Part shown: positions 50,204 to 53,200 of the stretch, piece by piece
How the letters are laid out: each line of letters begins with the position of its first letter
Position numbering within the stretch: the first letter of the stretch is position 1
NCBI RefSeq assembly: GCF_041381155.1
Contig: NC_091141.1
Coordinates: 22,092,828 to 22,156,827, forward strand
Direction: 5' to 3'
DNA from: Argopecten irradians
Taxonomy: Eukaryota; Mollusca; Bivalvia; Pectinida; Pectinidae
DNA: 64,000 bases
The notes under the pieces: model-generated
Database searches by the model: none
What the model saw: the letters and a program-made list of their open reading frames with translations, nothing else
Told to the model about the DNA's origin: nothing
Translations under genes and position numbers: made by a program

Positions 50204-53200
50204 TCATCTCGAGTTTTTAGGTGTACTTGATATACTTCGGTGACTGGTCCTCTCACTGCTCGATGAAGAATATGACCTTGACCTTTGACTCCTTGTCTCC
50301 TGTGACCTTGAGTGCCGCTTACTGCCATTTGGGGTGATGGAACGTGATCTGGACTTGGCTGTCCTTCGTCTAAAAGAAAATATTCAGCGTCAATATATTT
50401 ATCTATATATGTTCTGGTAAGTATATGTAACCTTTATACTATGCTATAGGAAGAAATTCACGAAAAGTCAAATTCAACTGTTTTGAATAAATCTAAAAGG
50501 CCTTCATAATTATATACATATATAGAATTTATCTGTTTACAACAGGGTCATCTACAAACCAGCTACTCTAATTATATATGATAAGTTTTAGTTTTGACTT
50601 CCATGAGCTTACAAACCAATTCAAGGGAGACAACATCCTTTTGCATGTCTCATATATAAACAATCAAATAATGAAGGATAACTATCGCAATGAGCTAGGA
50701 TTTTGTCCTTAGTTATAAGTCTGTAAACAAGATGTTAGTTGTGTCATACCTCTTCTTCTTTGTCCTCTCCGAGTCTGAGCTGTCATCTGAGGACTCGGAG
50801 CTAGAGCTTGAACTCGATGACCCGGAGCTGGAACTGTCTGAGTTAAATCCTGTAGGCTTACTCAGATCAACTCTATCAGCCATGGCAGCTACTGCTGGCT
50901 TCTCTCTCTGTTAACAGATAGATGGAACATGTATAGCCAGGAATAAACCATGAAGCAGCAGAATTAAGTAAATTTGGTAAAATCCTGTTTATTTATCAAG
51001 AATCTTACCGGATAAACTGATTTATTGGTGTCTGTAGCAGGAACACTCACCTAAAGAGTGCGGTACCGTTTCTTTGACAGCTTTGGTCAACCTTTCACTC
51101 TATAACTCACCTGAAGTGTGCGGTACCATTTCTTTGACAGCTTAGGTCAACCTTTCACTCTATAACTCACCTGAAGTGTGCGGTACCGTTTCTTTGACAG
51201 CTTTGGTCAACCTTTCACTCTATAACTAACCTGAAGTGTGCGGTACCATTTCTTTGACAGCTTAGGTCGACCTCTCACTCTATAACTCACCTGAAGTGTG
51301 CGGTATCATTTCTTTGACGGCTTAGGTTAACCTCTCACTCTGTAACTCGCCAGTAGTGTGCGGTACCATTTCTTTGACTGCTTAGGTCAACCTTTCACTC
51401 TATAACTAACCTGAAGTGTGCGGTACCGTTTCTTTGACAGCTTAGGTCAACCTTTCACTCTATAACTCACCTGAAGTGTGCGGTACCATTTCTTTGACAG
51501 CTTAGGTCAACCTCTCACTCTATAACTCACCTGAAGTGTGCGGTACCATTTCTTTGACAGCTTAGGTCAACCTCTCACTCTATAACTCACCTGAAGTGTG
51601 CGGTACCATTTCTTTGACAACTTAGGTCGACCTCTCACTGTTTTGTGCCAGACGACAGGAAAGTTTGTTACACTACAGAAGTTCTGGGTAACAGCTATAG
51701 TATCGTCTAGATTGACCACCACGTGCCACCATCCTCCAGGCACGAACACAGTCTCACCAGGACACTGCAGAATCTCCAACTACAATTTCAATACCAGCAA
51801 AAACATTATTCAGGATGTATTTCATTTTTAGAAACTCCTGAAACCTAGTATATTGTTTATTCATGAGTACATTCTGTCATTGTATGGTAATTTCAATTTT
51901 TTCATGAAAAGTTAGACTATGGAACAATAACACTAAAACAAGGTTCACTGTTTCCATAGCAACTAAAAACTCCTGTTTTAAAGTATATAGCGGAATATCA
52001 CAGACTTAACGTAAGGGAGGTTCCTTTTTTATCACAGGTAAGCACGATTTGGTTCTATAAATAATGCAATGCTTAAAGGCCCAATATCTGTATCTTTCTA
52101 TTTTTTTTCATGATTTAGAAGAATGTTGGGAACAAAAATCCTGTTGTAAATCATGCAGAGACAGGACTAAATCGAAGTCAATATGAGCGATTATGATACA
52201 GAATATTTTGAAAAAAATCGAACAAATATTAAACATCTCTGGGTGGGTCCCACTTAGTCAAACAAGCCGAAGTTAGCTGACATTGTATCGTCGTTGCTGA
52301 GAATGTTATGTGACTACCGTAACTACGTAACGTCTGTCCGAACTCTTCCGGAAACGGGTCATGAACGTTCCGACTTCCCTTCGGCAATAATCGTAACTTC
52401 TATGGCGACCAGTTTAAAATGAAGGCGTGTTTACATGTATCGACTTTCAACAACTGCTATACCAAAGTTATTAAAAAAACATTATAAATATTCTTTGATA
52501 TATCTTAATTTCAACTACATCTAAAAATACTAACAATATCGGAGTTGAATTTAACTTGAATTTTTGTTGATAGTTACGTATAGTGTGGCTTTAAGCTTCA
52601 TATTTAGCTTAAGATGCCCAGTGAGAGTTCCGGAGGTTTTTCCTGCTATGTTTTGGTTAGTCAATAAGTATTTTGATTGACATCCTACCAACAGGGTAAT
52701 TTCAGGACCTGTACATTAAAGAGTTATCTGCCCTTGTAAGAAGGTATTGACTCTGACACCATGTGTTTACGATCCTAACGTCATACTTTTCAGAGAAAAC
52801 AACAAAATGACATCACAATGGATACCTGCCCACAAGGGAGCTAACTCTGTCATATGCATACATGCCATATTTTCTAGGGGTGGTGAGGGAGATTGATAAC
52901 CATTTTAAGAGATTTTGGTCTCAAAAAAGGGAGGTATGCGCGCGACATATATGAATAGATTTAATATCTGCTTTTTTATGATGAAATTCTTTGCAAAATA
53001 AACACAAACACGTAATTTCATGTTCTGTAACAATTTTGCTTCATTTAGGTATCATTTTTCACATTGCATTTGCTTTCTTTGCTTTTTGGAATACAGCATT
53101 AGTCAAGAGTGTAGCTGAAACAGTCTGCATTCATATTGAATTTTACTGAAATAAAAGAATGTGTGGTTTTGCAAAAGTAGTCACATCCCTATTTATACAC

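What the first reader, a model, noticed from the sequence alone, without database searches (positions are those of the whole stretch)
51050..51640. Minisatellite that multiplies a splice donor: ten copies of JMJD6 exon 7 end plus 5' splice site
The 60-bp unit is 48 bp of exon and 12 bp of intron, so the intron begins with nine extra donor sites, most with intact GTGAGT. Sixty is a multiple of three, so frame is kept. However, most copies carry T for C in TCGACC, making a stop: use of any extra donor or intron retention would give a JMJD6 ending ...[10 protein letters not shown] without the Ser-rich tail. JMJD6 itself modifies splicing factors, so this is a possible self-regulating or buffered splice site.
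Basis: seen in the sequence. Interest (0 to 1): 0.85.

Follow-up and report, generated by a model that had tools for sequence, protein, structure and literature searches.

The report
Splice-donor "mirage" minisatellite in scallop JMJD6
In what is almost certainly a scallop genome, the end of a JMJD6 exon with its splice site has been copied ten times in a row; it is one case of a kind of repeat first described in amphioxus and found here at several other genes, most likely a by-product of repeat expansion that the splicing machinery ignores.

Summary
On the minus strand at 51039-51638 lie ten 60-bp units, each 48 nt of JMJD6 exon 7 plus 12 nt of intron. Six of nine extra donors read GTGAGT; eight of nine extra copies carry the in-frame stop. 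Exon 7 joined to exon 8 at the first donor gives a protein that aligns without a gap across that junction to solved JMJD6; donors 2-10 all give the same 325-residue protein without the Ser-rich tail. The JMJD6-specific, self-regulating reading is not supported. The array fits a known kind, the "mirages" (exon-intron-boundary minisatellites) of amphioxus (PMC3087553 passages). In this genome, a scallop by its muscle myosin, the kind recurs: of 19 other donor arrays fetched, 13 showed a 5' edge and 7 of these start at a coding exon end, 5 with homology on the abutting exon. Units are not preferentially multiples of three (4 of 9); JMJD6 extra donors show no detectable constraint. Most likely: near-neutral expansion inside the intron, first donor used. 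No RNA was available. Boundary minisatellites at many genes of a mollusc are the interesting part.

The parts
51039..51638 (-). boundary ('mirage') minisatellite: ten 60-bp units, each 48 nt exon 7 end + 12 nt intron start (last six bases of unit 10 are ordinary intron)
51591..51779 (-). JMJD6 exon 7 (189 nt, phase 0 end); its last 48 nt are the exonic part of copy 1
   Evidence: PDB JMJD6 E 2.7e-34; exon model
51585..51593 (-). copy-1 donor CAG|GTGAGT, first intron base 51590; the donor that gives the conserved protein
51039..51578 (-). nine extra copies inside intron 7; donors GTGAGT x6, GTTAGT x2, GCGAGT x1; stop at the CGA position in 8 of 9
50908..51590 (-). intron 7 (683 nt), of which 552 nt is array
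50750..50907 (-). JMJD6 exon 8 (Ser-rich tail)
   Evidence: alignment continuous across exon 7/8
50204..50369 (-). JMJD6 exon 9 (RS-like C-terminus, stop codon)
54133..57641 (-). JMJD6 exons 1-6 (57641-57587, 56701-56490, 55769-55617, 55130-55030, 54595-54500, 54280-54133)

Best explanation
It is a mirage-type minisatellite. A tandem duplication once covered the exon 7/intron 7 boundary of scallop JMJD6, and the duplicate expanded by slippage or unequal exchange to ten units. Such a duplication leaves the first exon end and first donor untouched and puts all later copies into the intron, so selection tolerates it. The spliceosome uses the first donor (51590), where the full exon body lies upstream, and removes the rest with the intron. 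The copies then drift: the CpG in TCGACC decays to TGA, and donors degrade in copies 4, 5 and 7. Occasional use of a later donor would give a transcript with a stop 197-677 nt upstream of the last junction, a likely nonsense-mediated-decay substrate (rule recalled). Shown: the anatomy, the protein continuity, the recurrence at other genes. Inferred: origin, donor use, neutrality.
For: Protein joined at donor 1 aligns without a gap across exon 7/8 to PDB 6gdy, E 2.9e-174. Donor positions are not more conserved than the rest. Same architecture at other genes: the joined GLUT exons flanking one array align continuously to PDB GLUTs, E 3.6e-20; RBM28 likewise, 1.3e-11; abutting midasin exon 1.9e-28; abutting sepiapterin reductase exon 2.1e-10; GatA only 0.0025 on the abutting exon, plus Amidase 2.5e-23 on the next. 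Units 60, 26, 27, 89, 67, 50, 60, 33 and 35 nt: 4 of 9 are multiples of three, P 0.35 against one third. Two near-identical loci (three aligned blocks 98.3-99.5%) carry 23-bp arrays of nine units each, one unit shorter before a marker unit and one longer after it, so such arrays seem to change faster than their flanks. Amphioxus mirages are reported not to disturb normal splicing (PMC3087553 passages; PMC3902484 passage).
Against: No transcript evidence. Five extra donors equal the real one in calculated U1 pairing (-11.9 kcal/mol) and a sixth is near (-11.0), so competition is expected to be real. Human IFI6 is reported to use two downstream repeat units as donors (passage of PMC4526556). Power to detect constraint in ten short copies is low. 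Four of the 13 arrays with a visible edge showed no recognised exon and two abut an unidentified frame.
Confidence: 0.85

Rival explanations
1. Self-regulating splice switch: JMJD6 activity on U1-associated or SR factors shifts choice from donor 1 to later donors, making a tail-less or decayed JMJD6.
For: Donors 2-10 all give one and the same 325-aa tail-less product. Human JMJD6 is reported to control its own splicing between tailed and tail-less isoforms (PMC7555845); LUC7L2 (peptide) and U2AF65 are reported as hydroxylated by it (PMC5352680 passages).
Against: Same kind of array occurs at genes such as a sugar transporter, GatA and sepiapterin reductase; extra donors not conserved; the stop is a single CpG transition that drift would give, and copy 7 lacks it. 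The human case is an added exon, independent of U2AF65 by that paper, and its intron was not compared.
Confidence: 0.05
2. Buffer or redundancy: spare donors protect exon 7 splicing against loss of the first donor, or raise local U1 density.
For: Six extra donors with strong calculated U1 pairing in line.
Against: Use of any spare gives a premature stop, so a spare does not rescue the full protein; three of nine spares are degraded.
Confidence: 0.04
3. Recursive or stepwise splicing: each AG|GT is both an acceptor and a donor, so 60-nt steps could be removed one at a time.
For: Nine of ten copies have the AG|GT form of a ratchet site.
Against: The stretch upstream of each AG is exonic and rather pyrimidine-poor (0.47-0.59 over -20..-4 against 0.59-0.71 for 7 of 8 real acceptors of the gene; but exon 7's own acceptor is 0.47, so the ranges overlap). 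A 60-nt intron is very short (recalled).
Confidence: 0.02
4. Assembly artefact.
For: Tandem arrays are error-prone in assemblies; the read type of this assembly is unknown.
Against: The array is only about 600 bp, most copies carry distinct variants, and similar arrays occur at other genes.
Confidence: 0.04

Closest known systems
'Mirage' minisatellites of amphioxus (Adh3, globins BflGb6 and BflGb9, troponin C; similar imperfect repeats in PGBD5)
   Different: Host here is a mollusc, not a cephalochordate; normal splicing and copy-number change were examined in amphioxus, not here.
Human IFI6 (6-16) minisatellite
   Same: A minisatellite that provides several splice donors (title of Turri 1995 in the reference list and a citing passage of PMC4526556; the paper itself is not held).
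   Different: Unit there is 12 nt (recalled) and two downstream repeat donors are reported as used; here the unit is 60 nt and use is unknown.
Human JMJD6 exon 5 (JMJD6-Ex5)
   Same: A splice choice that removes the Ser-rich tail, reported as controlled by JMJD6 (PMC7555845).
   Different: Extra exon with frameshift, not repeated donors; same intron not verified.
Intron gain by tandem duplication of AG/GT segments (Rogers model); human internal tandem repeats at exon-intron boundaries
   Same: Tandem duplication of a segment with AG|GT near an exon end (PMC3087553 passage; PMC2812944 passages).
   Different: Here an existing intron is lengthened; no new intron is seen.

Membership tests
Mirage (exon-intron boundary minisatellite) | Tandem repeat whose unit spans an exon-intron boundary | tested here: met
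   48 nt exon + 12 nt intron per unit; exon verified by homology
Mirage (exon-intron boundary minisatellite) | Splice signals present in many but not all copies | tested here: met
   GTGAGT in 7 of 10 copies, GT in 9 of 10
Mirage (exon-intron boundary minisatellite) | Normal mRNA spliced at the exon-adjoining copy | tested here: inconclusive
   Protein continuity needs donor 1; no RNA examined
Mirage (exon-intron boundary minisatellite) | Length instability between haplotypes | not testable with these tools
   One assembly; for another array, two near-identical loci differ in unit order
JMJD6 (JmjC dioxygenase) | Sequence match over the catalytic region to solved JMJD6 | tested here: met
   PDB 6gdy, query 2-344, E 2.9e-174; Pfam JmjC on exon 6 alone only 21.7 bits, under its 24-bit cut-off
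IFI6-type multiple-donor minisatellite | Extra repeat donors used in mature mRNA | not testable with these tools
   No transcript data
Autoregulated JMJD6 splice switch | Tail-less isoform ratio responds to JMJD6 level | not testable with these tools
   No expression data; human parallel only

The most novel reading that the evidence does not exclude
Minisatellites that straddle splice sites are a genome-wide class in scallops, hundreds or more, at donors and acceptors, seeded preferentially at exon ends by some process tied to transcription or splicing, and the spliceosome there reliably picks the outermost of many near-identical sites. That would make the scallop a natural experiment on how splice-site position is chosen when sequence is held constant.
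Probability: 0.3. Interest if true: 0.75.

Novelty: new member of a known kind. Interest (0 to 1): 0.5.

Why it matters
The JMJD6 array alone is a curiosity. As one of several, it shows that mirage-like repeats, which I saw described only in cephalochordates (searches and their limits in the report), also occur at many genes of a mollusc. Because the copies in an array carry almost the same splice site, RNA reads over such arrays would directly test whether exon body, position or distance decides which of several equal donors is used. They also offer a route for introns to grow and, by the Rogers model, to arise.

Tried and rejected
Taxon: COX1 (PF00115) gave no match in the assembly, so muscle myosin was used instead; a first myosin exon (L027) proved to be of the myosin-XV kind and said nothing on the taxon. 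GFP (PF01353) gave no match, but that search rang in no control either, so it is only weak evidence against amphioxus. Rfam found nothing in the window. Pfam on six short exon peptides gave nothing at E up to 1, and one GLUT exon alone only reached E 0.1 in the PDB; longer or joined exons worked.

Motif counts: CAGGTGAGT three times at 41-71 spacing gave 1654 matches against 286 for the pattern read backwards; with a further A, 862 against 1; AAGGTAAGT 1165 against 266. I do not claim enrichment from these: single CAGGTGAGT sites also differ, 9737 to 2883, matches overlap within arrays, and one array holds 91 of the 100 listed backwards places. Distinct arrays on C1: 10 for CAGGTGAGT (list cut at 71.3 of 75.5 Mb) against 2 for the backwards motif.

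Sample: 19 donor arrays were fetched, 10 and 9. In 6 (L037, L048, L049, L051, L053, L055) the 5' edge was not seen. Of the other 13, 7 abut a coding exon: for L030, L033, L035, L036 and L056 homology is on the abutting exon (L033 weak, E 0.0025), for L028 and L054 only on another exon of the gene; L031 and L032 (one duplicated locus) abut an unidentified open frame; L029, L034, L050 and L052 showed no recognised exon. Arrays listed but not fetched: C4:20.04 Mb, C1:71.335 Mb and a second place on C3. As a sample not chosen by motif, 15 myosin-chosen loci held 7 arrays of at least 2.5 copies, 1 shown to straddle an exon edge (L043) and 1 unclear (L024). The other boundary arrays in L030, L035 and L036 were noticed by eye, not counted over a fixed set. 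Edges of backwards-motif arrays were not fetched, so there is no control for exon anchoring.

Considered and dropped: selection on frame, selection on the donors, a second JMJD6 copy without the array (none found).

Full report
What is there. The finding holds. TRF reports 51045-51639 as 9.9 copies of a 60-bp unit with 93% matches and no indels, and the repeat finder gives one family at exact 60-nt spacing. Read on the minus strand, ten units run from 51638 down to 51039. Each is GTGAGAGG...CACTTCAG (48 nt) followed by gtgagttataga (12 nt). Copies 2 and 3 are identical; copies 1 and 4-9 differ from them at 1-6 positions and copy 10 at 10, because its last bases are already ordinary intron. The donor of copy k begins at 51590-60(k-1). 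GTGAGT stands in 7 of 10 copies (6 of 9 extra ones), GTTAGT in copies 4 and 7, GCGAGT in copy 5. The coding CGA of copy 1 is TGA in seven extra copies, TAA in one and CGA in one.

The gene. Nine exons on the minus strand give a 425-residue protein. It matches solved JMJD6 (6gdy) over query residues 2-344 with E 2.9e-174, and the alignment runs without a gap through the exon 7/8 junction made with donor 1. The exon 7 peptide hits only JMJD6 entries at E up to 0.001 and gave one match in the assembly; the array DNA also gave one. If any of donors 2-10 were used, the product would be the same 325-residue protein ending [10 protein letters not shown], with its stop 197-677 nt before the exon 8/9 junction. 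By the usual 50-55 nt rule (recalled) such transcripts would be decay targets.

Is it constrained? Among copies 2-9 the nine donor positions vary at 3 and the other 51 at 9 (Fisher P 0.36); over all ten copies, leaving out the last six columns, 4 of 9 and 10 of 45 (P 0.22). If anything the donors vary more, but ten short copies give little power. So six extra donors could compete. The stop comes from one CpG transition, a common kind of change (recalled), spread by copying.

Whose genome. The window lies at C8:22092828-22156827 of an 845.8-Mb assembly in 1508 contigs. A muscle-myosin exon there is identical over 107 of 107 residues to PDB 1dfk, 1dfl and 1b7t in the alignments shown; 1kk7 and 1qvi have the same score. 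I recall these as bay scallop, Argopecten irradians. 2ec6/2os8 (recalled Placopecten) and 3i5f (recalled squid) score lower. So it is a scallop, probably Argopecten or near it; the name is an inference.

Not alone. I searched the assembly for three CAGGTGAGT spaced 41-71 nt and fetched the 10 distinct arrays among the 100 listed places, all on C1, then 9 further arrays from two related searches. In 13 of the 19 the 5' edge could be seen. Seven of the 13 start at a coding exon end: a sugar transporter (L030; the two exons around the array, joined, align continuously to GLUT structures, E 3.6e-20), GatA (L033; 67-bp units over about 4.5 kb with 58 perfect donors; abutting exon E 0.0025, next exon Amidase 2.5e-23), RBM28 (L035; 50-bp units, 47 perfect donors; joined exons hit RBM28 at 1.3e-11), midasin (L036; 1.9e-28), sepiapterin reductase (L056; 2.1e-10), a carotenoid oxygenase (L028; the next exon is RPE65 at 7.4e-20; the abutting exon was fitted by eye) and a perlecan-like gene (L054; Ig domain on a neighbouring exon; gene and abutting exon named by eye). 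Two (L031, L032) belong to one duplicated locus with an unidentified open frame; four showed no recognised exon.

Arrays that I had not searched for turned up at splice sites too. In L030 a second array of 89-bp units starts at the donor of a later transporter exon (Sugar_tr 9.1e-12 on that exon). In L036 a 64-bp array ends at the acceptor of another exon, whose string LSPALRNRFTE also stands in the midasin chain (not searched by itself). In L043, fetched only for a myosin exon, a 56-bp array ends at that exon's acceptor and runs to the edge of the fetched stretch. A probable fourth, an 83-bp acceptor array in RBM28, runs off the fetched stretch and is by eye. Among 15 myosin-chosen loci, 7 arrays of at least 2.5 copies were listed and this one was shown to straddle an exon edge. 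In the three cases where exons were joined and aligned (JMJD6, one GLUT array, RBM28) the protein needs the copy next to the exon body.

What this says about function. Unit lengths of the nine donor arrays are 60, 26, 27, 89, 67, 50, 60, 33 and 35; four are multiples of three, as chance allows (P 0.35). So the in-frame 60 of JMJD6 needs no special reason. In two near-identical loci (aligned blocks 98.3-99.5%) the 23-bp array has nine units in both but one fewer before a marker unit and one more after it. These points favour passive expansion.

Known kind. Amphioxus genes carry "mirages", tandem repeats spanning exon-intron boundaries at either end, with AG/GT signals in many copies; RT-PCR was reported to suggest normal splicing, and copy number differed between haplotypes (passages of PMC3087553). 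A 60-bp and a 108-bp repeat at splice sites were reported in lancelet PGBD5 (passage of PMC3902484). The human IFI6 minisatellite supplies several donors, two of them reported as used (passage of PMC4526556). In print from molluscs: I saw none, but only three searches could have shown one (listings only), in an open-licence library; the two searches leaned on the word amphioxus. The one mollusc paper listed (PMC3862624, cone snails) speaks, in the passages seen, of short simple repeats in introns, not of boundary repeats.

Limits. Gene names for L028 and L054 rest partly on recall. Sampling was by motif, so the share of boundary arrays among all minisatellites is not measured, there is no control set for exon anchoring, and the 7-of-13 figure applies only to arrays carrying repeated donor-like 9-mers.

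Noticed in passing
L033 (C1:49455500-49465000): GatA-like gene with 67-bp units straddling the donor of an early exon, about 4.5 kb (TRF rows sum to roughly 70 units), 58 perfect CAGGTGAGT donors on one strand.
   Followed up: partly
L036 positions 28-512 and 3083-3365: Midasin gene with an acceptor array (64 bp) and a donor array (60 bp) at different exons of the same 6.5-kb stretch.
   Followed up: partly
L030 minus strand, about 3600-3877 and 5459-6160: Sugar transporter gene with two donor arrays (27 bp and 89 bp) at two exons.
   Followed up: yes
L035 6768-9001: 83-bp array, probably straddling the acceptor of an RBM28 exon; runs off the fetched end.
   Followed up: no
L043 1-180 (minus orientation): At least three 56-bp copies of an acceptor region before a myosin exon, found without searching for repeats.
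   Followed up: partly
L031 and L032 (C1:30.13 Mb plus, 30.36 Mb minus): Inverted, 98-99% identical duplicated locus (or uncollapsed alleles) whose 23-bp donor arrays differ in unit order.
   Followed up: partly
L024 1-437: 80-bp array of 5.4 copies with an AG|GT step in each unit, near a myosin exon; relation to an exon not settled.
   Followed up: partly
window 6721-13051: 58-bp satellite-like array of about 109 copies, 96-98% matches.
   Followed up: no
window 59656-61929: Diverged 52-bp array of about 43 copies with open frames of up to 333 codons on the minus strand.
   Followed up: no
window 28567-28749 and 32332-32499: Two related 81-85-bp tandem pairs rich in GGGGGA/CCCCC.
   Followed up: no
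window 50204-50369: The last JMJD6 exon encodes an RS-like tail (SRSRSITP...[12 protein letters not shown]).
   Followed up: no
L034 3430-4149: 240-codon open frame that looks like a LINE reverse-transcriptase fragment (by eye) beside 29-bp donor-like arrays; Pfam gave only GIT1_C at 6.1e-6.
   Followed up: no
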